64,000 nucleotides of DNA from Branchiostoma floridae (taxonomy: Eukaryota > Chordata > Leptocardii > Amphioxiformes > Branchiostomatidae), in assembly GCF_000003815.2 (NCBI RefSeq), contig NC_049982.1:16290621-16354620 (forward strand), read 5' to 3'. Position 1 is the stretch's first letter. Each line of letters begins with the position of its first letter. Shown piece after piece: positions 5,901 to 32,800 of this stretch. The translations under genes and the position numbers were made by a program. The notes beneath the pieces are model-generated. The model was not told the DNA's origin. It was given only the letters and a program-made list of their open reading frames with translations, and searched no databases.

Positions 5901-7768
5901 TACATGAAAGGTCACCAACATATAGTTGAAATTTCCCGTACTAGACACTACCACAGCATGGACGCCTTCTCGTACTACGACCTGCTGGACAAGAACACGG
6001 GCGGGCAGGCCGCGGAGGGGCACAAGCCGAGCTGGTGCCTGGAGAACACGGGCTGCGGCTACACCAGCAGGAGACCGGTCTCGTACAACTGTCACTGGGG
6101 CACACAGGTCAGCACTCACGGCCTTGGACTCTGGTATGGTAGGATAGGATAGGATGTCGTCCTGTGAGATGGGAACTAATAGATGGCACTGTATACCTGA
6201 TGATCATACAGTGCACTGCTCTCAGTATCAGGAAATGATGGCTTTGATGCCAATGCCATTGCTGTCTTAAAAATCATGGCGTCTCTCACAAACCAGCCTT
6301 GTGCTTTCATCATGTCCGATGTCCTATGTCTAGTGCATGTTCAGATTGCCAATAGAATTAATCTTTTGTTCAAAACATAAACATTTTCCAACCTTGTAGA
6401 ATTATCAGTAAATCGCCAGGCGCATATGATCTTCAATAGACTCATTCTCCAACAACCATTCATATGTTTGCCATATGGTGACACCACCATGACCCTACCT
6501 GGTGATGAGCCCATCTCCTGGCATGACGTCTGTGCAGGTGACCTCTCTCAGCAGGTGTTAAATATAGCTGGTGCATTTCAGGGCATCTCCAGTGGTTGCT
6601 GGGATACATACACCTCCGATCTGGACTGCCAGTGGATAGATGTGACCGATGTGACGCCGGGATTTTATATCATGGAGGTTTGTATTTACTGCTACAGAAA
6701 GTGTGGGTGTGTATTTACTACTTCAGAACGTGGGGGTTTGTATCTACTGCTTCGGAACGTAGAGGTTTTAATTTGGCAACAGAACATGGAGTTTGTGTGG
6801 ACGTAGATACAGAAACTGGAGGCTTGTATGTGTATGTACTATTAAATACAGCCTCAGACGTGGAGGCTTGTATTAACTAAATACAGAACGTGGAGGTTTG
6901 TATTTTCAATCGCGGAACACGGGGGTTTATATTGGCTAATACAGAACATGGAGGTTTTTATTGAAGCCATATACCGTCTCATCCACGGTGCTATGTATAA
7001 CAAGGTTCAGGGCGACGGCAAATACTAAAGGCTAGTGAGTTATGGCATAAGATTTTTTTTAATTTTTGGAACGATAACGAAAGATAGTTATGTCGCAACG
7101 TGTGTCATGATGATCTCAAATGCCCAAATATGTCTTGACTGGGTTCAAAGACAAGCAAAGGTAACAATAACATTGGGATCTATGAACTTTTAGAGACTCG
7201 ATGTAAAAGCTAACATAGTGTCCCTGTGTTTCCGCCTGATCTCAAGGTAGCCGTGAACCACCACCGACGGGTTATAGAGTCGGACTACTCCAACAACAGG
7301 GTCCGCTGTGACGTCATACTGGAGAAGTCCACCGCTTATGTCTATAACTGCATCAACACGTGAGGGCAATTTTTTTGTTCAGTCTTGCACCGTTTCTAAA
7401 TTCTACACCATTGGGGGCAAAAAGGAAAATTATCCCCATGTTCACAGCTGTGGAAAATGCATTAATGTAGATCACTCTATATCAATATGTAAATCTTGCA
7501 AAATTTTGAAATATTTAGAATTACAGAGAATATTATAATAAATGGTGGGTAGTCCTGACTCGAGACAAGGTTTTGAAGAACATGACTATAGATGTAAACC
7601 TTCTGTACTCGTTTTTCTTCCCCCAGGGACCTACAAGGCCTTGGACAACTATACCGGTATGGCCATTTTCATTTTCTTCTTCACGTTATTCTATTGAAAA
7701 AAAAAATATTCCTTTGAAATTTCTCACAGTCACGTTCTCCAATAAGATTTCGCTTTTTTTCCAGCTGA
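2901..7768 (+). CDS. LOX: LOX-A: lysyl oxidase catalytic domain, 5' part not found
   Basis: Lysyl oxidases are secreted copper amine oxidases that oxidise lysines in collagen and elastin so that they crosslink. Exons seen: 2901-3141, 5945-6107, 6582-6677 and 7247-7359, plus a terminal exon near 7765. The first starts at the GLPDLVPD motif and ends WHSCH plus CA. The second starts A then HYHSM, completing the copper site. The LTQ lysine is in EGHKPSWC and the LTQ tyrosine in CWDTY (equivalent to human LOX Lys320 and Tyr355). All ten catalytic-domain cysteines are present. Splice phases are 1, 2, 0, 0, 2, identical to LOX-B downstream. No SRCR domains are visible, so this is the simple LOX type. 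The signal peptide and propeptide exon is missing or upstream. Unlike LOX-B, each cassette is present once. A stop directly after NCINT is the simplest ending, but alternatives exist. Confidence 0.85.
4424..4665 (+). mobile_element. Decayed CR1-like non-LTR retrotransposon, RT 3' end
   Basis: The translation shows the usual C-terminal tail of CR1/L2-type reverse transcriptases: [18 protein letters not shown], then a [11 protein letters not shown] motif in the first frame. Near 4600 the match moves to another frame, [15 protein letters not shown], followed by a stop at 4663-4665. The frame change shows the copy is dead. It lies in the first visible LOX-A intron and is truncated on the 5' side. 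An AATAAATAAA tract near 4909 may be the end of its 3' UTR. Confidence 0.6.
5292..5305 (+). repeat. Homopolymer G run (14 nt)
   Basis: Fourteen consecutive G in a LOX-A intron. A second run of the same length lies at 29704-29717. Such runs often vary in length between assemblies. Confidence 0.9.
5690..5915 (+). repeat. Hairpin-ended dispersed repeat, copy 1
   Basis: This shares a string of landmarks with the copy ending at 31250, in the same order: a GCTGCAG-ACCAAGG segment, a GGGGCC box, ACACCC-CAAT-TGCCAAAT, CCATCAAG, a GACAGACGGACAGA tract, ACACAAACAC, and a terminal hairpin (CCTCCAT and ATGGAGG arms). Its end lies only about 30 bp before the 5945 splice acceptor of LOX-A. Confidence 0.7.
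6673..6965 (+). repeat. Imperfect minisatellite carrying donor-like sites
   Basis: About ten diverged units of 25-40 bp, each centred on GTGGAGGTTTGTAT and often preceded by ACAGAAC. The first unit is the real exon-intron boundary of LOX-A: exon end GGAG at 6677, donor GTTTGT. The array therefore consists of repeated copies of the splice-donor region inside the following intron. Confidence 0.75.
7627..7768 (+). CDS. LOX: LOX-A alternative terminal exons
   Basis: The preceding exon ends at 7359 with AC (phase 2). Two strong pyrimidine-tract acceptors follow. The acceptor at 7626 opens a 30-nt mini-exon (7627-7656, donor GTATGG) or, if not spliced out again, a tail of about 30 residues. The acceptor at 7764 gives AC plus C TGA, an immediate stop at 7766-7768. 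The mini-exon joined to 7765 gives a C-terminus about ten residues longer. The sequence does not decide between these. Confidence 0.4.
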
Positions 7769-12107: not shown

Positions 12108-13055
12108 CGGAGCAGGATGAGAAACTGTACATGTCGAACACAGATATGCGGGGTTATCTCCGGTCGCCTTCTGTAGGACCAGCTGATGTTTACAGTATCG
12201 TTTTTCAGGGTTGGAGGGGACATGTGTTCCTCAGCAAACTATCCCCGCCATTACCGGACAGGTCTTTCAAATCCCCTTCCTTGATCATGAAACACATCAT
12301 AGCAGGTAATGTGATGCAAATTGACACAAATCGAACCTGGTAGCGTTTTTACTTTTCTGTTTGGCATTGACGTTCATGCCATAAGTTGGTAGGTACACAC
12401 TGCCGACCTTCCTGTGGACCTTGGGGTAATGAGCCCAGACAGGACTAATGTTTTTTCGTCTCCGGGCCATCCCAGCAGCACTGACGGCGCTGCCAAACGT
12501 ATCAAATGTACCGGCGTGTGGCAGGGTTTACAACTGAAGTTTCCCCGAGAGGAGTCCGCCCACTTTGGCATTTTTCTCTCGCCTCGGCTCGGCACGTAGG
12601 CCATATTGACCTGACAAACTTCCCAGTCATACAGACAGGGCCGGCTGGATTAGATTCTGGGGCAGAGGTCGATCCGCCCTTTTTGTGAAATCCCAGAGAG
12701 GTCTATGAGGCGAGGAGGAACATCAGTGAACTCTAGAGTGCGGCCAAGACTCTATCACCTGTGCTGAAGACGCCTATTGGCTACCCTTCCTCCAGACCCA
12801 GGACCCCTTGGGTCACGTGTTACTGTCGGCGGTCCATAGCCGGTGGGGGAGTCAGCAAGAGACGGACGTTCCCTCAGTCTCTAGCGAGCCCCCTAGGTGA
12901 ACCTTGGTGATCCAGAGTGCCAGAGAACCAGCGCAGCCAACAAAATACCGCTAAAGTTACACAAGCCGCAGCGATTGTAGGTCACTCAGCAATCCAGCAC
13001 CGCTCCAGCTCCAGGCTTTTCTCAAGCAAGTGTGAAACTTCCTCCTCCCGTCAAG

Positions 13056-13464
13056 ATGCCATCTCAGTGCATGAAAGTATTCCAGTTCACCGGCGTCACC
13101 TCGTTCGTTGTGTTCTGTATGTTATACGGTGTGTACCAGTACCAGTACTTCTACAACGGGAACTACTACTATCCGTACAACTCTTACCAAAGCTCGTCCT
13201 CCTCGTCGTCGTCGTCCTACGCGCAGCAGTACGCGCAGTACCTCGCCCAAAACTTCGGCTCCCACTCGCAGTACGCCTCCCAGTACGGGTCCTCGTCCTA
13301 CGGCTCCAGCCGCGTGCAGCCCGGCTCCCAGCCCCAGTACGCCTACCAGCAGTACAGCACAGGCGGCCGACAAGCAGGACAGCGCACCTACAGCCGCAGG
13401 TCTCCGGCCTATGGATACGCCAGGAGAACCACGGGCAGGCGCTCCAATTCTCTCAGGAGATCCG
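13056..13464 (+). CDS. LOX: LOX-B exon 1: signal peptide and Tyr-rich propeptide
   Basis: Encodes 136 residues plus one base. Residues 8-24 are hydrophobic (signal peptide, or less likely a signal anchor). Residues 24-127 hold about 22 tyrosines with many Ser, Gln and Gly, including a run of nine Ser (a TCG/TCC codon repeat near 13191-13217) and [11 protein letters not shown]. The last 25 residues are Arg-rich ([19 protein letters not shown]) just before the catalytic domain. Vertebrate LOX propeptides are disordered and Arg-rich, so the Tyr/Ser/Gln-rich part differs. The exon is open in all three + frames. The frame used is fixed by the ATG, the signal segment and the phase-1 donor (GTCGGT), which completes the Gly of GLPDLV. 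The donor is weak. Confidence 0.85.
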
Positions 13465-16400
13465 GTCGGTTGTTATACTCTTTTCTTACAATTTGAACAT
13501 GAAGAATGTTTCAAATCACAATTGATGTGTAATGCTTATTTCTTGTGAGCTGAAAACAAATTTACAGGATTATCGCACAGTGCAAGTTATAGGGGAAGTT
13601 TCTGTTTCAGAAATTGATGTTTACATATGTTCGTTAACTGATTTAAAGAAAAAAGTCAATCCCTTCATGCTGTACGGCAATTTTCCAGAAGTCATCAACA
13701 GTTTTGCACCCTCCCTTCAGCACTGATGAACAAACATTAGCTTGTCACCACCGGGCACTGTAACCTACACATCAAGTTCAACAGTGACGTTCCACCCGGC
13801 ACGTAAAATCCCGCTGTGTTTGCTTTGAAGGGAACTGTTTATTCCTGGCTAACTGCAGGAATGACTGTGTTAAAACGGGGCTTTGGGGCGTGACACTCAT
13901 CCAAAATCGCAGACGCAAAAGATGTAAATAAACCTGTCAGCATTCATATTGCTGTCAATCTGGTTTCTATTCAACAAAACATCTCCTCTGAATATCAGGT
14001 CATGTTATTTTTTTGCGTTCTTGAGCCTGAGAACGGGAACATTTGGTAGGAGTTTATTTTGGCTTTATATATGTACGACGTTGTCTTTACTGACACCAGT
14101 GTACAGTAGTGCTCTGTTGTCTGCTCACGACCGGGTGGCGCTTACAGTTCGCAAGAACGTTCCCACTAATTTGTAGACGAAGGGGTTAGGGGCCAACATA
14201 AAACAACGCCCATATTTGTGGTCAGTCTGAAGTGTGAATTGGTGCTTTGCTTTCGGTTTAAGGCCGCCTCACGTGAGGTGAGTTTGCGGTACAGCAGAAC
14301 TAAGGCAGCCGAAATGTTTGAACGTCAACAACGAAACAAATTAGCTGCAATACTTAGATGTGCCCAGTTTGTGGTCAAAACCTTACACAATGTAAAATGG
14401 GATCAGAGTTAGACCCGTAGTTAAAATAAGAAAAAGAGGGATGCTTTCAAGTCGCTTTGTAACTGTAGGACCTTAATATTATTAAGAGAGGCCAAACGTA
14501 GACCCTGCCGCTACGGGCGAATGTGACAGGCGCAAAGTCATCAGACAGTACTGATAGCGCAACTGTATTACGGGTGTACATTGGAAAATACCTTTTACAC
14601 CGAAAACGCCGTTCATATGGCCGATTAGAATATTGATTAAGGCCTTGGCTAATACAATTATACTGATTATCACCATAGACTTTGCCAATAGTGCCAGAAC
14701 TATTTCTTGTTGAAGTATGGGCCGTTTTGGTAAGACGTTTATCGGTAGGTCAATCAATGAATGACTGCTTTACTTAGGCCTCTCGAGTGGGCGGGACTGT
14801 AGCCAATGGCTAAGTAAGCTCACTGCCTGTCTTTATAGGTGTATGCTTTTAGTAGGAACTGAAGATACACAGGTTAATGAGTTAGCCGATTGGTTAGCAC
14901 ATCCTTTACTACTGTACTTAGTAACGTTAACATTTTGCCGCTGTGGGCCTGTTCGGTTAAGGAGATCGAACAGACCAATAAATGAGTTCACGCTTCCGCT
15001 TCTTGACAAATTATCTGTGTTGCCGGTTGTCCCAGGCCTGCCCGACCTTGTCCCTGATGCCGCCCTGGTGCAGACCACGGCCTACACGGAGAACGTGCCT
15101 CTGTACCGACTGCAGTGCGCCAAGTCGGAGAAGTGCCTGTCCAGCTCTGCCTACAGCCGGACCGCCACCCAGGACAGCGTGCGGCGGCTGCTGCGCTTCT
15201 CACAGCGGACAACCAACGAAGGAGACGCGGACTTCCTGCCCGACTCGGACCCGTCTCAGTGGGAATGGCACTCCTGTCACCAGTGAGTACTGATGTGTTG
15301 TTCTGGTGACTCACAGTTCCGCACCGGAGTTTGCTAATCCGTGACCCAGATGTTTCGGCATCCATAATTGGAGCCGGACATGTTTCATTTTCTGTTCAAA
15401 CATCATCAAAATCTATTAAAGGCATCAGATAATCAAATCTTTTTATAAGATGATAACAGGTGTCGGATTGAAAGTGTGATTACCATCTTTCGGAACTTGC
15501 CATGACTTTAGAATATATTAGACTAAGACTTCTGTTGCATTGACTGGCGCCTGCCCCAACTACATGTATCTTGACAAATGTGATAGCCGACAGCCATGGC
15601 CGACCAATGCTGTAAGAATGTTAGAAAAATAGTTTTCTCTAACTTAAGTACTGCTTGTAAGGCGCACTAAGTAACCTAACCATGTTTTACATGCCGCCTA
15701 AGCTGCCCCCCTCCCCACCTACTTGACCCCCGAGGCTCCCCCGGCGAGTAAGGTGCGCAACTCCATCGAATCCATATGGCAATAGGGAACAACATTCCGT
15801 GCCGCGGGAAGAAATATACTGACAGGTCCCTTCCTAGGAAATATAGGAGCTTTGAATCGTCGTTCCTTGATAGGCGGCTCTAGTTGTGATTAGCGTCGTA
15901 CGGTTACTTTTGCTGTATTTGCTAGAACACAAGGCAACCTCTTTGAGCTACTCAACAATCAGGTGTCCGTAGATTCCGTGTGGAAAGTCGTCTTAGTAAA
16001 GGTCTTACGTGCAGGTTCGACGGTCACTGTGGTGATTGGCATTAAACCTGACAAACCGTACCGCTTCCCGTTAGGTGGTCCTCTTCACCTGGCAACTAAC
16101 TACTCCTGCCTTCGCCAACATACACTACATACCTTTTATATGATAGGTCGCCTTTAAATATTCACAAGCTAGAAGGCCATAGAAAGCCCAGCCTGTCCAT
16201 TGACTAAACTTTGAGAGCTGAGGAAAGAATGTCAACATTTGAATCGTTTGTTTTGAAGTATGTCCGGACTTTAAAAGACTCATTATAGACTCCTTGCGTA
16301 CACGTCATGGCTACTTGAACTCGCCCATATTCAGTGTCTGTAGGCATTTCTGGAATGACAAACTCAATCTTCAACAACAGCGCGGAGTGTGTGTGGTTCT

Positions 16401-19400
16401 AGGTTGTTCTAGAAAGACGAAGATCATCATCGTGGAAGATGCAAAGACGACACGACAAATCATCACAGATATACAAGTGGCGAAAGTCGGAAAGAGCGTG
16501 TCCTGATGTTCACCTGAGACCTACCAGTGCCAGTGAGAATAAAACACTTTTGTCTTCGCACAAAACCGCTAGCTTTAGGAGAGCAGAACGTTACAACAAG
16601 ATGAAAGATGGTTTAGCCACAAACTATGCACAAAAGGCTGCTCAGTATAATTTTACAAAGGAGTGACAAAAATCAGTTTTTGAATGATAACTTGCCGTTT
16701 CATGTATATCCTCCGTTTAAAAGTACAGTAACTTCTATCCACTAACAAAAACTATAGATTTCCTAAAAAGCACAGGCAATGAAGAGCTTGTCAACAAACA
16801 TTTCACGTTTTTTCAGTAGCGTTTGACATCCAGCTACATGCCCAACATCCACTCATCCCCGTATGATACAATGTCTAGACAAATACCTATGGTCCAGCGC
16901 TAGCCGACACGGCTACTCCCAGGCAAAAGAGCATGAAGTGCTTCAGACTCAGTACATCATTCACAAAACACAGCGAGATGAAGACACAACAGCTTACTGT
17001 CTAGAACCAAACACCCTTAACCTTAAGGGGTGAAAGTAGTAAATAACCGAGAGGCCAGATCCTCGGTTAACGTACTGAAACTGGCGTGGAGAAAGGTTGG
17101 TATAACGCCTAGTCTAGTGCCAATGTTCAACCACTATAGCTAAGTGTGCTGATATATTTAACAACGGTCGGTGTTGTATAACTCCGCCATGGCATTAGGC
17201 AGTTAGATTCAAACGCACTACATTGTTTATGCTTCGGGACAGGTGATAACTCACCGTGAGGTTTTATACAGATCAAGCGCCTAACAAAAATACACACAGG
17301 TTACGGCTGTGTTTATGGTCCATTCTTTGTGCGTTTGTCACCACAACACACGTGTGGCGGGAGGCAGGGGTGGGGTTCCCTTGTCGCCGCTCCTTACCAT
17401 AGCTAAGAGCTATTACTTTCCTAATTAGCCAACATGTGTGACCACTTATGTTAGGTGAAACCTCGATGCCCCGATGGGGACGCTATGATGGACGTCTGGT
17501 TTTATAACGGCCTAAGCTCACTAATTCAGTTTGACATATTCAAACGACATACAAGGTCAACGACTTAGTTTGTAGACGTTCAACTTTTTTGAAGAGGAAT
17601 TGTACTGGAACAGATCATCATACCTGGTACATTATGGATGCTCATATAAAACACCAAAAGTTCATCTAAAGCTCATGAACTTGTAATGTCCGATGGCTGG
17701 TAATATCCTAGACAGGTGTAAGAGATTTTAGACTTGGCAAAACTTTATTTTTTGCTACTTTGTACCAATTTCATTGTATTCCATGTAGGTTGGATCTCAG
17801 TGAATTATTACGTACACAGTGACTCAGCAGTCTGATGTTCCCCTGACCCGTGTTAGCAGTTAGACTTGGTTTGGTACAAATGGGTTTTACCGCACCTTGT
17901 TCGAAATTCTGGGCCCTTAACGTGTTAAGTAACAAAAGTGACCCCAGGTCAGGTCATTCAGGTGTAGATTGCACTACATGAAAAACCGGCAGCCGCGGCT
18001 TGTTTGTTGTAGTCTATTAGCGAGGATGGGAAGAAACAATGAGGCTTTTCAGAAGGCGTTTTGTGAACACTGGGGGTAACATAAACTGATTCCAACCCTC
18101 CCCTAACCCTGTCGCCACCTAACGCGTGAGGAAATGCACGTATGCCCCGCCTCGCGACTGCCAAGTACAAAGTCCACTTCGCTTATCTTGTAGTAACATT
18201 GACTCTGGTCAACGTTATCCTATCACGTTTAAAAAAAACCTAGTTCTGCTACACGCGACAATTGCCAATTTTAGAGACATTATGCTTTTATGCAGGTAAC
18301 TACTCTCCAAGCAGAGGTTAGACTCCGGCTGCCTTTTGACGTTTTTTTCGGCGTTTTCATCGGGCTTTCTATTTTGTACCGTTTCCTGATGTCTCACGAG
18401 ACATTAACCGGGCCTTACCTTTGCTTAGAGAGTAGCAGGTCCCGTACTTTTATGGTTTTAGCATATTTTTCACCTAAATGGAGCATACCATAGCAAAGCG
18501 CACCGAATGAGGCAGCAACATAGAAGAAGAGGTTTTACTGATCTGATGAAGCGATCAGATATTGGAGGTTGAATTGGCAAAACATTGTCCGAATGGTATG
18601 TTAGGAGACAGACAAAGTAAAAAGAATATTGGTGCCATCCAAGGGTGATTGATGAGTAGAATGAGTTCATACTATAGTACCTCATCCTCGTAACCTCCAT
18701 CCCTCATGTAATTTCCATACCTCTACCGACCTCTGTTTAGCTGTGGTATAAATTTGGTTGTGACAAAAATGAGATACGCAAATAAAGATTCATAAATCAA
18801 GCTCTAAGGTCGATAGATGACGACTATGTTCACGCCTTTTTCGCCTGCATCACCATCAAAAGGTATAGTGTCTCTACATTCCACAAGTGGCATCGTATAC
18901 ACACGCCATGCGCGAGGGATACACTGCGGCTACAAGCATCAATCAGCGCCAGATTGCATTACCAGGGTGGTCTGTACAAATATAAACAAGCACCGCAATT
19001 GGTCCATTGACCAGATACTACTTTGGAAGGTGTGGGAAATAGCCTGTACCCTGTGATGATGGGTCTTCAAGGACAAATACGGCGGGATGGCCTTGGCGCT
19101 TTGTAAGTTTAGGAAAGGGCGGAGCACCAGCTGACGCGTGACTAAAGACCTGCACGTTAGATAACAACAACGTCTGGGCTGTGCTGACATCTTACTGTAG
19201 GGTCAACAGATCGAGTTTAAAGACTTAAAAAGCTTTAATCACTTAATCGACCGTCTGACATCATTAGCTCTAATGGGTCTGGAAAAATTGCAGGACAGTC
19301 TCAAGGGCCGAGTCTTGATAACTTCGACTCAAACACTAGGCTGTGTGCCTATAGCTTTCTTGTACAGACTAATTAGGCTTTTATGAACAACGATCTACTC

Positions 19401-22365
19401 TAGATGTAACGTTACTTAGCATATGTGTCTTTAAGGTAATGTAATTTGTATGATTGAAGTTCATCCTTCACTCACTATTTCTGCCCTCTCTCCCTTGTCT
19501 TCTTACAGCCCCTACCTCTGCGGTCAAGACTCCTGGATCCCATCCCTCTTCACTACTACCCAGCCACCATCTCCGCCTGCCTCTCTATGAACCCTCAGCT
19601 CCTGGTTGGTCTACACCTTCTGCCACGTGACCTCTTAACGTAAAACTGTGTTGATTTACAGGCATCACCACAGCATGGAGACGTTCGCAAAGTATGACCT
19701 GCTGGATGCGTCCAGTGGACAGCAGGTGGCGGAGGGACACAAGGCCAGCTTCTGCCTGGAGGACACCGGGTGCCGCCGCACCTACCGCAAATATAACTGC
19801 GCGCTAGGACGCCAGGTGAATAGCCTTTTCTGTCAACTGCCTCTAACGTATGGAGTTCTCATTTCTTTCTCAGGCACCATCATAGCATGGAGGTATTCAC
19901 GTACTACGACTTGCTAGACGAGCGCACGGGGAAGAAGGAGGCTGAAGGCCACAAGGCGAGCTTCTGCTTAGAGGACACAGGGTGTACCTTCTGGACGCAA
20001 AGGCAATATCTGTGCAGCACTGGTGTTCAGGTGATGTGTGGAGGTTAATCACTGCACTAACTGCATGTTTCTGTGTTGATGTCCCACCTCAGTCACCATC
20101 ACAGCATGGAGGTTTTTGCTCACTACCTACTCCTTGATGTAACGGGCGCGAGGGCTGCGGAAGGGCACAAGGCCAGTTTCTGTTTGGAGGACACCCAGTG
20201 TAGCTTCAATTATCTCCGCAAATACGACTGTGACCTCGGAAGCCAGGTGAATCTAGGGCATGTAGCCGTCCGTAGACAGCTGCAAGACGGCGCACCCTAA
20301 CGGCGCTATCAGCATAGCGCATGAGCGTCCCACTAGGGGTGAGCAAGGGCTAGCTAGCCCGTACAACTAGTTCCCACACTTACGCATTTTTGTGGCAGCT
20401 TAAACCCTACCTCCACTTTAGGCGGTTCAGAGCAGTAAAAACACCAGGTATCAACTTGGACCACAATAGACCCCTGAAGCTATTTACTGACAATATCATG
20501 TTAGAAGGTATTGCATCGATGATTGTATAGCACAAGCCACAAGTGTTTACGAATAGTGTAGGTATATATAGTAAGAGGCAATAAAAAATAGGAGTACCTC
20601 CAAATTTCTGTCTGTCGTATTTCATAGAAGCCAATCAGAAACAAAATCGTCAACACGCGTACAGTTGAAAGGCAGACTGCACACCCTGGCTGGGGAAGCT
20701 GTATAGTCTTCGGTTGCTTACTTCAACAGACTATATAATCAGCAGAACACACGCCATTACCATAGCAGCATCACCCATTTTGTCTGTGTTTTAGTTATTG
20801 ATAATATCATGCTAACTAGCATTAAACTTCCTTAATTTTAGCAGTTAGATTTGCTGGTCAACGAAAAGTTAACATTATCATTCGCCATATAATAAAACTA
20901 CAGTGCAGAGCATGCTGAAATCTTACTGATTTCGTTCGTCGATCCTTGTGACAGCAGGCTGGCCATGTTCCACTGACTGATTATGGCTACTTGATCTTTT
21001 CCATCTCTAGGGCATCTCGGCGGGTTGCTGGGACACGTACAAGCACGACATCGACTGCCAGTGGATTGACATCACTGATGTCAAGCCTGGAAAGTACATC
21101 CTCGAGGTGCGTACATACCAGTAGTGCCTGACACTAAACCTATGTTTTGTTGCTCTCTTCAAGGGAATTGCTGTCAACTGCTGGGACAGTTACGAACACA
21201 ACATTGACTGCCAGTGGATTGACATTACGGATGTCAAGGCCGGCAACTACGTTCTGGAGGTTTGACGACTACTGTGCCTACTGTGCCCTCAAGTTTGTTT
21301 TCTCTAACTAGATTTCAGTCTCAGTCTGCGTCTTCTTAAAACCCATTTCTCAGATGTCTTTTATCTTCAAGAGCCGATCCAGCTTTCTTCTCGCCGTGTT
21401 CTTCTTGGATGCTGCGTTCCTGATCGCTTTGTTATTGACTTGTCTGACCCTCTCTCTACCAGCTCTTCCCGTTCCTGAGTACCGATGGTATACAGAGCCC
21501 TACCAATGCATCCAATCCCTTCCTACCCATCCTGAGATCCACTGCAACTCTAATTGTCTGTACGGTTGTTACTTCCCAACCAATACAGAATACAATCCCT
21601 TTCATAGGCTGTCCTTTTGATGGTTCTCAGTCATTCAATCCTAAGACCTGGTTGACCTCTGTTACTGTTCTATCTTCCTGTAAAGACCTATTGTGTGAGT
21701 CTGAAAGTGCATGTATTAAGATAATGAGATTGGCATGGTGTGATGGGTCAACTATGGCATTTCTCCATCAATGAGTCCAGATAACCTCGTACTTGTCGAC
21801 TGTTGGTAGAAACGGCTCTGGGTAAGTCACAAATAATTGTGGCTTTATCATATAATTCACTGGTAGACTGGCTTCCGGCAAAAATATGGGGTACAACGGT
21901 ACTCATTCATTGACTAATCTGTAGGTTGTGTCGTGTTTGTATTCTCATTTCTTTGTAGATCTCAATAAACCCAGAACGCCGCGTCAGGGAGAGTAGCTTT
22001 GACAACAACAGGATCACATGTGACGTCCGGCTATATAGGAACAGCGTACAGGTCTACAACTGCATCAGGACGTAAGTTTGGGGTAGATCCATCTTGTATC
22101 GGTTCTGTTCTCCATAACTTTTAAACAGAATTCTGCTGTTTTGCGGATTACATGTATATGTATCTTTCTTTATGCAGTGTTGACTAAAATGTCAGCATCT
22201 GTTTTCTTCAAAATGCCGTTAAAAAGTATTTATCACCTCGCGGTGTCGGTTCAGTATATTACTAGGAGTGTCGGGAGAACATTGGCTGATGTACATCTAT
22301 CGTTAGTTTGGTCACGATGCTCCTGTTCGTTCCCTCACAGACACCTGAGAAGCAGCCGTGGGTGA
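13056..22365 (+). CDS. LOX: LOX-B: lysyl oxidase with duplicated active-site exons
   Basis: A secreted copper- and LTQ-dependent lysyl oxidase acting on extracellular collagen or elastin-like proteins. Exons: 13056-13464, 15036-15282, one of 19662-19815 / 19874-20030 / 20093-20246, one of 21011-21106 / 21164-21259, 21959-22071 and 22341-22365. With the first copy of each cluster the coding length is 1044 nt, exactly 348 codons including TGA. Phases run 1, 2, 0, 0, 2. The ATG at 13056 has no in-frame stop before the splice and precedes a hydrophobic signal segment. The catalytic domain keeps ten cysteines, the WHSCH-x-HxH copper site, EGHKASFC (LTQ Lys) and CWDTY/CWDSY (LTQ Tyr). No SRCR domain is seen. 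It is a tandem paralogue of LOX-A, same orientation, with the same intron phases. Confidence 0.93.
13465..15035 (+). other. LOX-B intron 1
   Basis: No extra exon is needed by phase. It holds a 12-bp palindrome CCTCACGTGAGG containing an E-box (14267-14278). Otherwise nothing recognised. Confidence 0.6.
15036..15282 (+). CDS. LOX: LOX-B exon 2: start of catalytic domain
   Basis: Starts at LPDLVPDA and ends WEWHSCH plus CA at a GTGAGT donor. It contains the first disulphide pair (LQCAKSEKC) and the first copper histidine of WHSCH. It ends in phase 2, so its last Gln codon (CA-) is completed by the first base of whichever copy of exon 3 is joined. Confidence 0.93.
15283..19661 (+). other. LOX-B intron 2 (4.4 kb)
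   Basis: The largest LOX-B intron, directly before the exon 3 cluster. No additional LOX cassette, transposon protein or RNA gene was recognised on either strand. Confidence 0.6.
19662..19815 (+). CDS. LOX: LOX-B exon 3a: copper/LTQ-lysine cassette, copy 1
   Basis: 154 nt, acceptor TTTACAG, donor GTGAAT, entering in phase 2 and leaving in phase 0. The first base G completes Gln. Then come HHHSMETF (two copper His), AEGHKASFC (LTQ Lys), the CLEDTGC disulphide pair and YNC. All catalytic residues expected from human LOX are kept, so it looks functional. It is separated from 3b by a 58-nt intron. Confidence 0.9.
19874..20030 (+). CDS. LOX: LOX-B exon 3b: copper/LTQ-lysine cassette, copy 2
   Basis: 157 nt, acceptor TTCTTTCTCAG, donor GTGATG, phases 2 to 0. 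Gln is completed by G; then [24 protein letters not shown] and YLC. It has one more residue than 3a and 3c in the variable part between CLEDTGC and the last Cys. If it is spliced after 3a instead of replacing it, the frame shifts and a TAG appears at the fourth codon. Confidence 0.9.
20093..20246 (+). CDS. LOX: LOX-B exon 3c: copper/LTQ-lysine cassette, copy 3
   Basis: 154 nt, acceptor CCCACCTCAG, donor GTGAAT, phases 2 to 0. The first base is T, so the junction codon becomes CAT (His) instead of Gln. The isoform would read WHSC followed by five His before SM. It keeps AEGHKASFC, the CLEDTQC pair and YDC. YDLLD of the other copies is YLLLD here. The splice sites are good and there is no stop, so it is probably used rather than a relic. 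Confidence 0.87.
20303..20360 (+). other. Two perfect inverted repeats after the exon 3 cluster
   Basis: The first is a 7-bp stem GCGCTAT / ATAGCGC with a CAGC loop (20303-20320). The second is a 14-bp palindrome GGGCTAGCTAGCCC (20347-20360). Both lie in the intron 57-114 nt after exon 3c. Intronic structure near exon clusters can influence exon choice, but no such role is shown here. Confidence 0.6.
21011..21106 (+). CDS. LOX: LOX-B exon 4a: LTQ-tyrosine cassette, copy 1
   Basis: 96 nt, 32 codons, phase 0 to 0. It encodes [16 protein letters not shown], with the Tyr matching human LOX Tyr355, then [16 protein letters not shown]. Acceptor TCTCTAG, donor GTGCGT. It differs from 4b at 9 of 32 residues. 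Confidence 0.92.
21164..21259 (+). CDS. LOX: LOX-B exon 4b: LTQ-tyrosine cassette, copy 2
   Basis: 96 nt, phase 0 to 0. It encodes [16 protein letters not shown] (LTQ Tyr kept), then [16 protein letters not shown]. Acceptor CTCTTCAAG, donor GTTTGA, which is weaker than that of 4a. It is 57 nt downstream of 4a. Because both copies are whole-codon exons, skipping one or including both would keep the frame, unlike the exon 3 cluster. Confidence 0.9.
21959..22071 (+). CDS. LOX: LOX-B exon 5: constant C-terminal catalytic exon
   Basis: 113 nt, the same length as the LOX-A counterpart, phase 0 to 2. It encodes [17 protein letters not shown] and the final disulphide pair (TCDVR ... YNC). Acceptor CTTTGTAG, donor GTAAGT. 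Confidence 0.92.
22341..22365 (+). CDS. LOX: LOX-B terminal exon
   Basis: Acceptor TTCCCTCACAG. AC joined to A gives Thr, followed by HLRSSRG and TGA at 22363-22365. It makes the total coding length divisible by three. Confidence 0.8.
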
Positions 22366-23164
22366 ACTGAAGTTCGTGCTCATTCAGAAGTCATCACTCG
22401 GCATTCAGACGCTCAATGGCTATTCATCGTCAGAGCATCTATTCTTGCGAAAGTCATCATCAAAATAGTTACAACTCGCCTCGACACAACTTGGTGCTAT
22501 GTGTGAACCGTTATCTTGTTTGTAGTAAAAGGACAACACGCTCCATTCAATCATGTAGAATGTTTTGCTATGCTGATTCCAACCAATAACTAAGTTTTAG
22601 CTAACATAAGCATCAACATTACTATGTAATAACCTCTGCAAGTGTTAACGTTACATGTTACAAATACAATGTTCTACAAACTAGCGAGAAGCGAAAAATC
22701 AACACTTTCATGGAATCCCATGGAGATATTTGCCATAAAGAAAAAAAAAACACAGATATGATGCTGACCGATTTCTACTGGATGTATATTTACGGTGAAG
22801 TTTTCTCAGGCTGTCAATTTAGAGCTTTTTGGATGTATTTGCTGCACGAAACGTGTATCTATATATATATAGTTGGACAAGTTGTTATAGGTAACTGTTT
22901 TGCCTGTCTCCATGACTGTGTGCTGTCTAATTCTATATATAATCAATACCTTGTACTATGTTGGCTGTACTTTATTCAGTGCTCTGTTTTGTATACCTGG
23001 TTATCAGTGTAATGCATGATTTCAGGAATTAATATTATGGTACTGCTAACCTCCATTGTAGTAATGATCCTTTTTTAAAATAATAAATCAACCTAAGTGA
23101 GAGATACACCCAACCAGCGGTAGATGTGATACTGTTTTGTTGTGTGAAAACCCGTTTCAATAAA
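22366..23164 (+). terminator. LOX-B 3' UTR with polyadenylation signals
   Basis: No further coding signal is seen. AATAAA occurs at 23082-23087 and 23159-23164. The second is followed within about 45 nt by a GT-rich tract (TTTGTTGTACGTTTGTTT), the usual downstream element. Confidence 0.55.
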
Positions 23165-26849: not shown

Positions 26850-29800
26850 CTACTGCTGTTGCTGTCCTGATGGGTGGCGGGAGGGTTTCTTGGGGAGAGG
26901 TGGAGTTTGGGAAGGATCTACGCCCTCTTTAATGGGGAGAGGTGGCACTGGCTGTGGAGACAAGTACACTGATAATGTGACTATTGAACAAGCTTATCTG
27001 TGATGGCTGTGGTGTTAATTATGACAATTTATCTTAATTGGAGACAAAAGTTAATTGTTGGACAGATAATTGTCATGGGTTCATGTCATTGCCCAATGTA
27101 ACTTGTAGCATCTCTAATATCCCTTGCCTATGTGCTTCTATCCAGACAACCACATGCACATGAAATGATCTCCATACAGTACACATTCACCTATGTACAA
27201 TGTGGCAGAAGTGGATTTCAGCAGAGACAAAAGGGGTTGGATTTACAAAAAGCCTGCCCCAAATGTAATATTACAGGCAACATCTGCCTGCAAAGAAATA
27301 GAAAACTCTTTCCTAAGAAACTACATGTAGACAACAAAATGACCTACTTGTACATCATTTCCTCTGAGTTCCTTTCATGTTAAAGTAATTGATATTACTG
27401 TTTGAATCCCTACCTTGCTCTTGCTCTTGGGGAGGGATGAAACCCTCAGGGGAGGTGGTAACCCCTGTTCATCCTCATCTTCTGCGATGTTTCCATAGTC
27501 AGCATAAGCTTTCTTCTCTGGCAGTGGGGGCGGCACATCACTGGACGACGAACCTGATAAGCAAGAGAAGCAGTCTGTAAGACTGGGTGACTATTTAAGA
27601 CAGCTCATAGTGGAGCCAATAATAGAAGTTGTTTCCTATTATAACAGTTTCTGTCCTGTTCTGCGTACATTGGTTCAGGTCCAAGACAACGGGTTTGTCT
27701 TCACCACAACAATATTAGTGCTTTGCTGTAGGTGGAACATTTTTTTCCAATCTTATCTCTGTCTGTTCCAATGTAGATCACATGTGATGGCAACAGCCTT
27801 GGGTTCAAGTTCACGGTTCCCTGCATCTGTGTATTTGTCTCCACTGTCTTCAACAACATTTACTCTGTCGTTGTTGTTCCTGGCTCAGATTTGGAATAGT
27901 TTGAATTCAGCAGCTTAGATGTAATTGATGAGGGTAAAATGGGCCAAATCTTTGCATCTCTTTTCAAGGATGTGTGTGCATTCGTCAAATACCTAAAATT
28001 GTGTACAAAGGGCACAGCACCAGATACCTTCAGAAGCTGACAAAACCAGTCTTGAACTTTGCTAATTACTGCCATTATCTAAGATAAAAGACTGGTACCA
28101 TTCAATTACATGGTTATTTTTCTATGTCAGTGAAGATACTATATATGACATTAAAGAGTCTTTTACCTAATCCCTACCTGTCTTATAAGGCACACCAACA
28201 GATTACTTACTTGTCGAAGACACACTTGCAGCAGGACTTGCAGACCGGTTCACATCCCGATTCACCTTTGGAGGAGGGGTGGCTGGGCCCGGCACACCGT
28301 TCTGCTTTGTAAGAGAAATCCGTGGCTGACTGACAGGTCTCATAGGCCGGGCTGGCTTCAACTGTAGAGAAATCCGTGGCTGACTGACAGGTCTCATAGG
28401 CCGGGCTGGCTTCAACTGTAGGGAAAAGGATGTGAACATGGCTTGGGTGGATGTACAGCAACTGAATTAGGTTTGGCCAAGCAACAAACTTGAACTGCAT
28501 CAATTAGGCAGCATCATTATACATGTAAGGTAGTCCCTTGGCTGTTTTGAGCTTGTACATGTTGAGGCTGTGGGTTATCCACCGTGCGTAGGGCATGGTA
28601 TCGGAAGGTGAAGCCCACTTCTCTCCTTCCACTGTACTTTACCTCCCTAAAAAAGTCAGGTTACCCATTTTCACCCGTGTGGAGTGAGGAAAATCATTCA
28701 AAATACCTTTACCTTAGGTTTTCTCAAGTTATCAGGTACAGTGTTTAAAGCATAGAAACACAATTCTACACACATGTAGTGAAGTCTTTCCATGTTCCAT
28801 TTCTAGCTACCATCCAGATTCCCCAAGAGCTCCTATCTGTGCCTATCTGGGTGGTCTTTACCCCACAGGAGTGTGGCACCCTCCCACAGACAGGACAGGT
28901 GGGTACAGTCAGACATGTACAGGGCAGAACCACACCACTCCCTGGCCTTGTGTACCAAACATTTCTCAATCTCTCACCTTTGGGCCATTGAAGCTCCTTG
29001 CCCTTGTCTTGCCCTCTACACTGCTTATTTTTTCAAACCTTTCAAAAACATAACCTTTGTTTGAGCCATGCAAAAGTACGACTCCAGGGATATACACAAC
29101 TTGTTCTTAGGGGTGGCCTGTGCTAACACACAGCAGAATATTCAAAGGTCAGGTGATGTAAAATGTCTTACAGTGTCCATCTTTGTCTTTTTAGAAAAGC
29201 AAAAAAGAAAATTCAATAGCTGATTTCATAGACTGACAATTGAAATTGGAATATTTTTGTTTTGATACAGTCTTAGGCTAATGTGAAAATGNNNNNNNNN
29301 NNNNNNNNNNNNNNNNNNNNNNNNNNNNNNNNNNNNNNNNNNNNNNNNNNNNNNNNNNNNNNNNNNNNNNNNNNNNNNNNNNNNNNNNNNNATAGTGAAA
29401 ATGTATGGCAAAAACGTGTTCAGAAAGAACACTTGCATTTTGGTTTTCTCAATGTCACACTATTGTCACATTGAAGCATGAAATTCCTATTACTACATAG
29501 TTGTGATATTTTTGTATCAATCATGCAAATTAAGCCCTTATTTGCATGTTTGTTAGCTGTTTATGTTCTATCTACCATAAATTATGTGTGTTATTTGCAT
29601 AACTTGTATCTCATTGTGTTCATCTCTGTCTAAGCTACCTGCATGCCCAAAATGATGGAATTTGTCTGTCCTTTCTTCAACCATCTTCATTGAAATGTTT
29701 TAAGGGGGGGGGGGGGGTGCGGGGGCAAAAGTCTTGGGCAAGAAACTACCAATACTTACCACATTGCTGTATCTTTTGCAATTTGCTTTGTTGCCAGAGA

Positions 29801-32800
29801 CTTCAGGGTATTTTGAAGTAAGCACCCATTTCCTTTCATGCCCTGACAGAGCCAATTTGTCTTCATTAGTGCAGTTTTACTTTGTGACTTTAAACTTGAG
29901 GGGCCACATCAAAATGCTACTATTTGTGTCACCTGAACCAGACACACAGATACTGGTGCATTCTTTAATGTGCTATGGCAACACAGTGTGGTGTAGTAGT
30001 GCTGGTGGAATGTACACTGTTTTGATACCATGAGGCAGCAGACCTACAAGATGATAGGGGAGGTTGTGTTGGAAGAAATGGCACAAGGAAGATAAAAAAT
30101 ACATAATTCAACTGCATAAGTAAGCTGGAAAAACAAAGGTTTCTGGAAAATCAAATGTATTTGTAGCCCTGGTAGTTTTGAGTCAAGTAACTAGATTTCG
30201 GCGACCTCATACCTCCATGAAAATTTAGAGCTTTTGTAAATTTCATGCAAATGACTACCATTTACATAATTTATGTATGGCGATGTTCATTATTGACTAA
30301 CGTACACATGTCACAATTATGAAATTCCCAATATTAGTCATTATGTGGATTTGCTATTTCTGTATATATTATTCAAATCAGTTCCTCACTTGCATATTCG
30401 GTATCTGCTTATCTCTCACCTATCATAAATTACATGTGTTACATTTATGTAAGTTCAGCTATTGAAAACAATGGAATTGTACAATTTCCTCATTAATTAT
30501 GCAAATTAAGTCCTCATTTGCATAAAATGTATATCATTATAAACACCTTTGCCTAAGCTACCTGCATGCCAAAAATGATGGCAATCCATCATTCCTTTCT
30601 ATAGTTATCCTCTTTGGAGTGTCTGGACGAAAACACCCCTGCAGTTCCACAATTACATGTTAGGGGGCTGGAACTTGCCCCACTTTGCCATGACGTTGAA
30701 AGCTATCTACCACCCAAATATCAAAACCATATCATGTCCGGTACAAGAGATACATTGAAAAACTGCTATGATAGAATAAGCTCATTAATTATGCAAATGT
30801 AATCTAATTTTGCATAATTTGTATTTTATCTTGTATAACATTGTTTAAGGTACCTACATACCCAAAATCATGAAAATCCATTGTTTCCTTCTTGAGTTAT
30901 CCACTTCAGAAGTTTCTGACAAAAATCCCCCTGCTATCCCAAAACCAGACGCTAGGGGGCCCAAACTTATGTCACTTATTCCTGAGACAAGAGCTATCTA
31001 ACACCCAAAAATTGGGACCATATCTTGTTCAGAACACGAGATAGCAAAACCGGAAGTGGCGCTGCAGTACCAAGGAAAGTCGCTAGGGGGCCCAAAATCT
31101 AATCACTTCTAGCTTTCGTCACACCCCATCAACACACTAAATATGAAACTAATCCATCAAGCCGTTCTTGAGTTATCTTGTTGACAGACAGACAGACACA
31201 CACACAAACGCAGGGTAAAATATAACCTCCATGACATATCATGGAGGTAATCAGAAATATCTTGTTTTATAGTAATGATCAGAAAGCATGTTCAGCTGGT
31301 ACATTTGTTGAATGGTAGAAATTCTAGAGCTTACACAAATGTATGAGTCACTATCTGCAGAATCTTTTATGACAAGTATAAATGAAGTTAATTTGTACTT
31401 GGTGTCAAAAGGCACTTAAATATTTAAAAGGCACTTAAATATTTGAGTAGTTAAGTGCTTAGTTCACATTTATCTCCTGTAATGGTTGCAATAGAATTCT
31501 ATGGCTGTTATCCTAAGATGACAATAGCCATGAAAGCCGGTTTCCTGTCCTTGGCCAAAGAAAAGGGGAGAAAAGTAGTGCCTTTGACACTGAGACGACC
31601 TGTAAATATTTCTGGTGAAGCGCCTGGGGAATGGAGCTGTTTACATGATGGATTGGATGTTAAAGCCATGCGACCTGGGAGGGCAGAGGTCACCAGGAGG
31701 CAGGCAGGTGTGAGGATGAAGGCACAAAAGGTGGTCACAGCAAGGTGGGGGCAACAACATACCTGCTGTGAATAGCAGCTACTTTAGATTAAAGGAAACA
31801 TCCCACAAGTTGTCTACACACAGGAGGGCACTTTAATCCTCAGAGACACTTCTCAACCCTCTTGACTTTCCCACACCTGTCTATACTGTCTATTGTCAGC
31901 CAAGCAAAGGCAAAGTTAACACAATATCTACTAATTACGTCAATCATACAGGTTCACGGAAGGGTGGAGGGCATGGGAGATTCCTCTGTCAGATGGACCA
32001 TGTTGTATGTCGGGGAATTTCTAAAGTCTGTCATCATTTCTAGCAGTGTTACAGATAGCCAAATGGCCCTGAAAATTTCTAACACTTAAAATCCTCCAAG
32101 TGGATTCAAATCTACCATATTCTTGTGTGACCTTGTGCTGTCTTGCAGGGGTGAGGGGACTGCTGAACCAAGGTCAGCTTTAGGCAGGAGCGACAGTTGG
32201 GAAAAACTGCTTTTCAGCAAGCCCTTGAAAGGCTTTAATTCAACAGCCACTAAAGATAAGGAAGGTTTGACAGCATTGTGGCCTTGCTTCTTCAACAGCT
32301 CACAACAAGTTTCCTTGCATAGATTTGAGGACAATACCCAGCACCATGTTCCACTGTTAACCAGATGCAGAATGTTTCCTGACAATTTCTTTCCTGTGTC
32401 ACATCTTCCGATGTACCTGGCCTATATCACTCCACACATGCCTATTTGATGGTCTCATCCCTATGATCCCGACAACACCCAGGGCACCAACACTTCCCAA
32501 GTATTGTGGCTACTGTGTTCTGCCCTTCTCTTTGATCAGGCAAGCATGATGACATGACACAAACCACACGGGTTAAACAGACACTTTCCACAGGAAATAC
32601 AGACTAAAGATAGTACAGATCAATACAATACAAGTATCCAAGAAATTCAGTTTTTTGTACAACAGTAATACTTCTGACAACAGTCACTGTGACAGTCACT
32701 GATAGTTCAACATGCTGTACCGTGCTGAATGTGCCAAGCTACATACCAAAAAGTGCTACATGAAACTGTTCCTGCAATTTTTCTTCACATCAGGCATTTC

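What the first reader, a model, noticed from the sequence alone, without database searches (positions are those of the whole stretch)
19662..20246. Three tandem copies of the LOX copper/LTQ-lysine exon, locked to one-at-a-time use by reading frame
Exons 3a, 3b and 3c are 154, 157 and 154 nt. All are 1 mod 3, enter in phase 2 and leave in phase 0. One copy keeps the frame. Skipping all shifts it, and joining two copies shifts it: 3a to 3b gives a TAG at the fourth codon, and any join to 3c gives a TGA about 15 codons in. All three keep both copper histidines, the LTQ lysine and the cysteines, so none looks like a relic. This fits mutually exclusive splicing inside the active site of a lysyl oxidase. 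I do not know of a described case in this family.
Basis: partly seen in the sequence, partly recalled or inferred. Interest (0 to 1): 0.92.

Follow-up and report, generated by a model that had tools for sequence, protein, structure and literature searches.

The report
Lysyl oxidase with swappable active-site exons
One animal gene for lysyl oxidase, the enzyme that cross-links collagen, carries three versions of one active-site exon and two versions of the next, laid out so that a working message should use only one of each, which would let one gene make six versions of the enzyme's active site; no RNA has been examined yet.

Summary
Exons 3a, 3b and 3c (154, 157, 154 nt; 19662-20246) are diverged tandem copies of one lysyl oxidase exon. 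Each has splice sites and an open frame, and each keeps the LTQ lysine, two copper histidines and three cysteines. Of 32 possible splice paths, 12 keep the native C-terminus, and all 12 use exactly one exon-3 copy.

First, the next exon is also duplicated (4a, 4b). It carries the LTQ tyrosine and is 96 nt long, so the reading frame cannot keep 4a and 4b apart. Second, the three introns inside the arrays are only 58, 62 and 57 nt, with best branch points 25-31 nt from the donor. That is below the published ~50-nt steric threshold, and the introns are shorter than each of 145 intron lengths estimated from this genome (shortest about 107).

Best explanation: mutually exclusive splicing, with adjacent copies blocked sterically and leftover exon-3 errors made unproductive by frameshift, giving 3 x 2 active-site isoforms. 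Two paralogues next door have single copies. Pairwise tests show strong purifying selection.

Not shown: any transcript, conservation in another species, or functional difference between isoforms. The searches named found no published case in this family.

The parts
13056..13464 (+). exon 1 (inferred): ATG, hydrophobic N-terminus, tyrosine/serine-rich pro-region; donor G|GTCGGT is weak
   Evidence: sequence and translation; joins in frame to exon 2; no transcript
15036..15282 (+). exon 2, 247 nt: start of PF01186 domain, ends WEWHSCH with the first copper histidine (role recalled); leaves in phase 2
   Evidence: PF01186 hit E 3e-21
19662..19815 (+). exon 3a, 154 nt: copper histidines 2 and 3, LTQ lysine (EGHKASFC), 3 Cys
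   Evidence: residue roles recalled
19816..19873 (+). 58-nt intron 3a-3b, best branch point CTAAC 31 nt from donor
19874..20030 (+). exon 3b, 157 nt: same elements
20031..20092 (+). 62-nt intron 3b-3c, best branch point CTAAC 30 nt from donor; one TGCATG (Rbfox-type motif, recalled) at 20062
20093..20246 (+). exon 3c, 154 nt: same elements; split codon gives His instead of Gln
21011..21106 (+). exon 4a, 96 nt, phase 0/0: LTQ tyrosine (CWDTY) and [12 protein letters not shown]
   Evidence: residue role recalled
21107..21163 (+). 57-nt intron 4a-4b, best branch point CTGAC 25 nt from donor (next candidates 31 and 32); in-frame TAG if retained
21164..21259 (+). exon 4b, 96 nt, phase 0/0: second copy of exon 4, LTQ tyrosine kept (CWDSY)
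21959..22071 (+). exon 5, 113 nt
22341..22365 (+). exon 6, stop TGA

Best explanation
This is a LOX/L1/L5-type lysyl oxidase gene with two neighbouring clusters of mutually exclusive exons, three copies of exon 3 and two of exon 4, giving up to six catalytic-site isoforms. Each mature message takes one exon 3 (copper histidines 2 and 3, LTQ lysine) and one exon 4 (LTQ tyrosine), so both partners of the self-made cofactor are encoded by swappable exons. Shown from sequence: the copies, their open frames and splice sites, the frame arithmetic, intron lengths, candidate branch points and purifying selection. Inferred: adjacent copies cannot be joined because donor and branch point are too close (25-31 nt) for U1 and U2 to assemble together; the 3a-3c join and total skipping are removed by frameshift and nonsense-mediated decay; isoform choice is regulated; and isoforms differ in substrate or matrix context through the variable residues around the conserved core.
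For: Pfam: three predicted isoforms (3a-4a, 3b-4b, 3c-4a; three of the six combinations) match PF01186 over positions 1-204 of 204, E 1e-81 to 1e-84. Frame: 12 of 32 paths keep the native C-terminus, all with one exon-3 copy. Introns inside the arrays 58, 62, 57 nt against 1571, 4379, 764, 699, 269 elsewhere in the gene. Best branch points 31, 30 and 25 nt from the donors; all top-four candidates in these three introns lie within 49 nt. Genome base rate: 145 estimated introns in CCT, kinesin and myosin genes, shortest about 107, none under 70 (18 long or stop-containing hits looked at for hidden introns; the one 63-nt suspect is coding). Published steric threshold about 50 nt, and OGDH exons 4a/4b enforced by branch points 25-41 nt from the donor (PMC7969005, passages). 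Purifying selection, pairwise: 3a/3b/3c and 4a/4b, Fisher P 4e-7 to 1e-9. Retention of any of the three mini-introns also hits a stop. Both neighbouring paralogues hold one exon 3 and one exon 4.
Against: No RNA evidence, no second species. The ~50-nt steric threshold was worked out in vertebrates; some other animals splice 50-60-nt introns routinely (recalled), so joining may be possible here. My intron base rate comes from three conserved families, from capped hit lists, with lengths estimated from profile edges. Branch points are scored with motif weights written from recall. The exon-4 pair can be joined in frame (ORF of 379-380 aa), and PF01186 matches that form in two stretches with a higher total score than the single forms (318.9 bits against 273.5-283.3). 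Skipping exon 4 altogether also keeps the frame. The 4b donor GAG|GTTTGA is weak (5 of 9 consensus; the other seven donors 6-7). No competing RNA structure was found. The exon tree does not resolve when the copies arose.
Confidence: 0.82

Rival explanations
1. Exon 3 is chosen mutually exclusively, but 4a and 4b are cassette exons that can also be included together, giving a longer protein with two copies of the tyrosine segment.
For: 4a+4b keeps the frame; PF01186 matches that form in two stretches with a higher total score.
Against: 57-nt intron, best branch point 25 nt from the donor, shorter than each of 145 estimated introns. A repeated segment inside a compact disulfide-bonded domain would probably not fold (inference).
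Confidence: 0.09
2. Only one exon 3 and one exon 4 are used; the others are unused or barely used leftovers of tandem duplication.
For: No transcript data; 4b has a weak donor; 3c has D to L in HYDLLD and a changed split codon.
Against: All five copies keep open frames, splice sites and catalytic residues although synonymous sites are near saturation. Unused copies should have decayed over that time.
Confidence: 0.06
3. Extra copies act as a brake: double inclusion or skipping makes NMD targets that tune enzyme level, and the protein variants themselves hardly matter.
For: All 20 paths without exactly one exon 3 end early, at least 103 nt before the last junction.
Against: Amino-acid sequence of the copies is constrained, which a pure decoy would not need. 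The exon-4 pair makes no frameshift. Short introns would suppress double inclusion.
Confidence: 0.03

Closest known systems
OGDH mutually exclusive exons 4a/4b
   Same: Enzyme gene; neighbouring mutually exclusive exons; branch points 25-41 nt from the upstream donor in the intervening intron, below the ~50-nt threshold (PMC7969005, passages)
   Different: One pair; sets calcium sensitivity (abstract). Here there are three plus two copies, in exons that carry the catalytic cofactor residues
Human and insect mutually exclusive exon clusters, including multi-cluster genes (Dscam, CUX1, TTN)
   Same: Clusters of tandem exons; possible steric interference in 57 of 629 human clusters and frame-shifting exon lengths in 377; several clusters in one gene (PMC5740500, passages)
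   Different: The term LOX does not occur in that paper's main text. Here both safeguards occur in one cluster and only the steric one in the other
Neighbouring lysyl oxidase genes A (SRCR-LOX type) and B in the same genome
   Same: Same catalytic exons, about 52-75% amino-acid identity per exon
   Different: Single exon 3 and exon 4 each; gene A has an intron inside exon 3 and none between exons 3 and 4
Human LOXL2 (PDB 5ZE3)
   Same: Catalytic domain aligns over residues 3-201 of the 211-aa query, E 1e-66; copper histidines, LTQ lysine and tyrosine conserved (roles recalled)
   Different: No exon variants of this kind known to me (recalled)
P4HA1 mutually exclusive exons 9/10 and PLOD2 exon 13A (recalled)
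   Same: Collagen-modifying enzymes with alternative exons
   Different: Recalled only; searches did not bring up a paper confirming it. Not the cofactor-forming residues of a lysyl oxidase

Membership tests
Lysyl oxidase family | PF01186 catalytic domain complete | tested here: met
   positions 1-204 of 204 in three of the six predicted isoforms
Lysyl oxidase family | Copper histidines, LTQ lysine and LTQ tyrosine present in every exon choice | tested here: met
   alignment with 5ZE3 and between copies; residue roles recalled
Lysyl oxidase family | Oxidase activity with LTQ cofactor | not testable with these tools
   needs protein
LOX/L1/L5 subfamily | No SRCR domains | tested here: met
   only PF01186 found in the predicted protein. 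Exon 1 is inferred, and the open frames upstream were not scanned for SRCR. Subfamily description from PMC4448552 (passages)
Mutually exclusive exon cluster | Neighbouring homologous exons of same phase and similar length | tested here: met
Mutually exclusive exon cluster | Exon 3: joint inclusion unproductive | tested here: met
   all 20 of 32 paths without exactly one exon 3 terminate early
Mutually exclusive exon cluster | Exon 4: joint inclusion unproductive by frame | tested here: not met
   96 nt each, frame kept; the steric argument is the only safeguard found here
Sterically enforced mutually exclusive exons | Branch point under ~50 nt from the upstream donor | tested here: met
   31, 30 and 25 nt for best-scoring candidates; true branch points not mapped
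Mutually exclusive exon cluster | Junction reads for each copy to the flanking exons and none between copies | not testable with these tools
   no RNA data held
RNA-structure (docking/selector) mutually exclusive splicing | One site able to pair with a site before each copy better than chance | tested here: not met
   17 of 60 and 27 of 60 shuffles did as well; single species, so a weak test

The most novel reading that the evidence does not exclude
A single gene makes six lysyl oxidases whose copper/LTQ active sites are assembled combinatorially: one of three lysine-side exons with one of two tyrosine-side exons. The isoforms would be tuned to different collagen or other matrix substrates, replacing by splicing the gene-family expansion that vertebrates used. 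The two cofactor halves, which must react with each other, would be co-selected or freely mixed.
Probability: 0.45. Interest if true: 0.82.

Novelty: new member of a known kind. Interest (0 to 1): 0.66.

Why it matters
Lysyl oxidases set the stiffness of animal matrix, and vertebrates have five or more genes for them. A gene that swaps the exons for both halves of the self-processed LTQ cofactor would be a natural series of active-site variants on one scaffold, useful for asking what controls lysyl oxidase substrate choice. The gene also separates two safeguards of mutually exclusive splicing: exon 3 has steric block plus frameshift, exon 4 has steric block only. Comparing joining errors in the two arrays would measure what each safeguard adds.

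Tried and rejected
Competing RNA structures: searched 501 and 754 nt beside the exon-3 array for a site pairing with the region before all three copies; no better than shuffles (17 of 60 and 27 of 60).

Age of the duplications: neighbour-joining bootstraps on exon peptides were unresolved (3a+3b+3c together 15 of 300, 3b+B3 183 of 300; 4a+4b 63 of 300, 4a+B4 176 of 300). This gives no support to the copies being younger than the split of genes B and C; the shared HHHSM (HYHSM in A, B and LOXL2) argues the other way. A maximum-likelihood attempt timed out.

Further copies: of 10 matches at E <= 1 in the genome, nine lie in genes A, B and C and one (C6, E 0.15) is unrelated. The DNA of the array occurs once in full. 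A weak window hit at 35069-34935 (minus, E 0.001) lies in a DOCK-like exon, not a lysyl oxidase (DOCK recognised from memory).

A kinesin gene showed three tandem hits and looked like another array. Read by eye, the copies are near-identical and the first two are cut short against the third, so it looks like a recent duplication; it was not used as a parallel.

Base rate caveats: hits come from capped lists (kinesin 122 of 191 first-look candidates scored; myosin 65 of 346). I left six of 134 kinesin rows with stops inside out of the pairing and looked at them. One of the 78 rows (87 nt) lies in a single open frame and is not an intron. One hit with 63 extra nt proved to be coding.

A GFP family search found nothing and did not help. 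Size (513 Mb), hits on contigs numbered 19 or below plus C143, and a LOX/L1/L5 gene without SRCR fit an amphioxus, probably Branchiostoma floridae; this is inference from recall.

Coordinates had exon 1, 2, 5 or 6 boundaries off by one to three bases; one search is the corrected version. One paper (PMC9013439) held none of the terms looked for.
Full report
WHAT IS THERE. The window lies in a 513-Mb animal assembly (contig C4). Its first 23 kb hold two lysyl oxidase genes on the plus strand: gene B (catalytic exons at about 2.9-7.4 kb; its first exon was not sought) and gene C (13056-22365). A third gene, A, ends about 8 kb upstream of the window (L009); it has further exons that look like SRCR domains (recognised by eye, not scanned), the SRCR-LOX type. 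The finding concerns gene C. All 14 scored PF01186 hits in the genome fall in these three genes. A search with the joined exon 3a + 4a protein gave 10 matches at E <= 1, nine in these genes and one unrelated at E 0.15.

THE OBSERVATION. Exons 3a, 3b and 3c are at the stated places with AG/GT borders and lengths 154, 157 and 154. Each enters in phase 2 and leaves in phase 0. I built all 32 paths that take any subset of the three exon-3 and two exon-4 copies between exon 2 and exon 5. Twelve keep the native C-terminus, and these are exactly the paths with one exon-3 copy. The other 20 end early, 103-604 nt before the last exon junction, so they should be targets of nonsense-mediated decay by the usual 50-55 nt rule (recalled).

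Exon 3 carries the LTQ lysine and exon 4 the LTQ tyrosine (roles recalled; residues aligned with LOXL2 5ZE3). Both halves of the self-made cofactor are therefore in duplicated exons. Exon-4 copies can be joined, or exon 4 skipped, without breaking the frame, so a frame argument cannot explain the whole arrangement.

INTRON SIZES. The three introns inside the arrays are 58, 62 and 57 nt; the other five are 269-4379 nt. Best-scoring branch points lie 31, 30 and 25 nt from the donor, and all top-four candidates in these introns lie within 49 nt (motif weights from recall). As a base rate I estimated intron lengths from neighbouring exon hits in CCT/chaperonin, kinesin and myosin genes of the same genome: 78 (from the lists) and 68. 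One of them (87 nt) is not an intron, because both hits share one open frame. Of the remaining 145 the shortest is about 107, and none is below 70. Eighteen long or stop-containing hits were checked for introns hidden inside a hit, and the one suspect of 63 nt is coding sequence. The estimates are good to some tens of bases, come from capped lists and cover only three families. Published work gives a steric threshold of about 50 nt between donor and branch point and shows OGDH exons 4a/4b enforced this way, with branch points 25-41 nt from the donor (PMC7969005, passages). In human, 57 of 629 clusters may use this mechanism, and 377 have exon lengths that would shift the frame on joint inclusion (PMC5740500, passages).

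HOW IT MOST LIKELY WORKS. Neighbours (3a-3b, 3b-3c, 4a-4b) cannot be joined because U1 at the donor and U2 at the branch point would collide. The 3a-3c join is not sterically blocked (277 nt between them, from the coordinates), nor is total skipping; both shift the frame and should be destroyed. Retaining a mini-intron also hits a stop in all three cases. The result is one exon 3 and one exon 4 per productive message, six isoforms of 347 or 348 aa. The steric step and the decay step are inferred; only the sequence layout is shown. What decides the choice is unknown. One TGCATG motif, of three in 13000-22400, lies in the 62-nt intron, and no shared docking site beat chance.

ARE THE COPIES FUNCTIONAL. 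The copies are 63-68% identical at nucleotide level for exon 3 and 75% for exon 4. Synonymous differences are near saturation while non-synonymous ones stay at 20-27% (exon 3) and 13% (exon 4); Fisher P 4e-7, 1e-9 and 1e-9 for the exon-3 pairs and 2e-7 for exon 4. These are pairwise tests and do not date or rank the single copies. All three exon-3 copies keep [13 protein letters not shown], and both exon-4 copies keep CWD(T/S)Y and [12 protein letters not shown]. The differences in exon 3 lie mostly before [13 protein letters not shown] and after the second cysteine. 3c is the most unusual (His for Gln in the split codon; HYLLLD). These are facts of sequence; that they change substrate choice is inference.

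AGE. Exon peptides are too short to place the duplications relative to the B/C split, and the bootstraps slightly favour 3b with B3 and 4a with B4. A shared change in all three C copies (HHHSM against HYHSM) points to a common origin within C or to conversion between copies. Near-saturated synonymous sites say the copies are old either way.

LITERATURE. Ten papers hold 'lysyl oxidase' with 'mutually exclusive exon'; from the listing none concerns such exons in a lysyl oxidase. I opened passages of one of them (PMC8321248), and they do not describe the feature. 'Lysyl oxidase' with 'exon duplication' gave three unrelated papers (listing). 'Lysyl tyrosylquinone' with 'splice variant' and 'exon' gave none. 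Listings for 'lysyl oxidase' with 'amphioxus' (10 papers) and with 'Branchiostoma' (12) show nothing of the kind. The main text of the family-evolution paper PMC4448552 has no word beginning with 'splic' or 'intron' (passages) and places LOX/L1/L5 forms without recognisable associated domains in tunicates and cephalochordates; PMC5120351 has no 'splic' either (passages). Most subscription journals and all database gene models were out of reach, so a predicted isoform set may already sit unremarked in a genome annotation.

VERDICT. A well-supported sequence prediction of a two-cluster mutually exclusive exon system in a lysyl oxidase. The splicing logic is of a known kind; its place in the cofactor-forming active site of this family appears new.

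Noticed in passing
L009 (G000:C4:16275000-16284999), 3500-7510: Gene A, ending about 8 kb upstream of the window, is an SRCR-LOX type lysyl oxidase (SRCR by eye) with different intron positions: exon 3 is split by an intron and its last part is fused to exon 4.
   Followed up: partly
window about 2901-7361: Gene B, a second lysyl oxidase with single exon 3 (5946-6107 from the first whole codon) and exon 4 (6582-6677) and HYHSM at the copper site.
   Followed up: partly
L011 about 1607-2132 (G000:C2:31967610-31968130): Three near-identical tandem copies (spacing 151 and 154 nt) around a kinesin P-loop exon; the first two copies are cut short against the third, so probably a recent duplication and not alternative exons.
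   Followed up: partly
window about 35125-34950, minus strand: An exon resembling a DOCK-family protein (recognised from memory) on the opposite strand, so a DOCK-like gene probably occupies part of the right side of the window.
   Followed up: no
window 6673-6961: Imperfect repeats of about 29 nt starting at the donor of gene B exon 4.
   Followed up: no
window 29504-30873: Two families of diverged direct repeats, 66 and 90 nt; not identified.
   Followed up: no
window 20062-20067: TGCATG, a motif of the Rbfox type (recalled), within the 62-nt intron between 3b and 3c; three in 13000-22400.
   Followed up: partly
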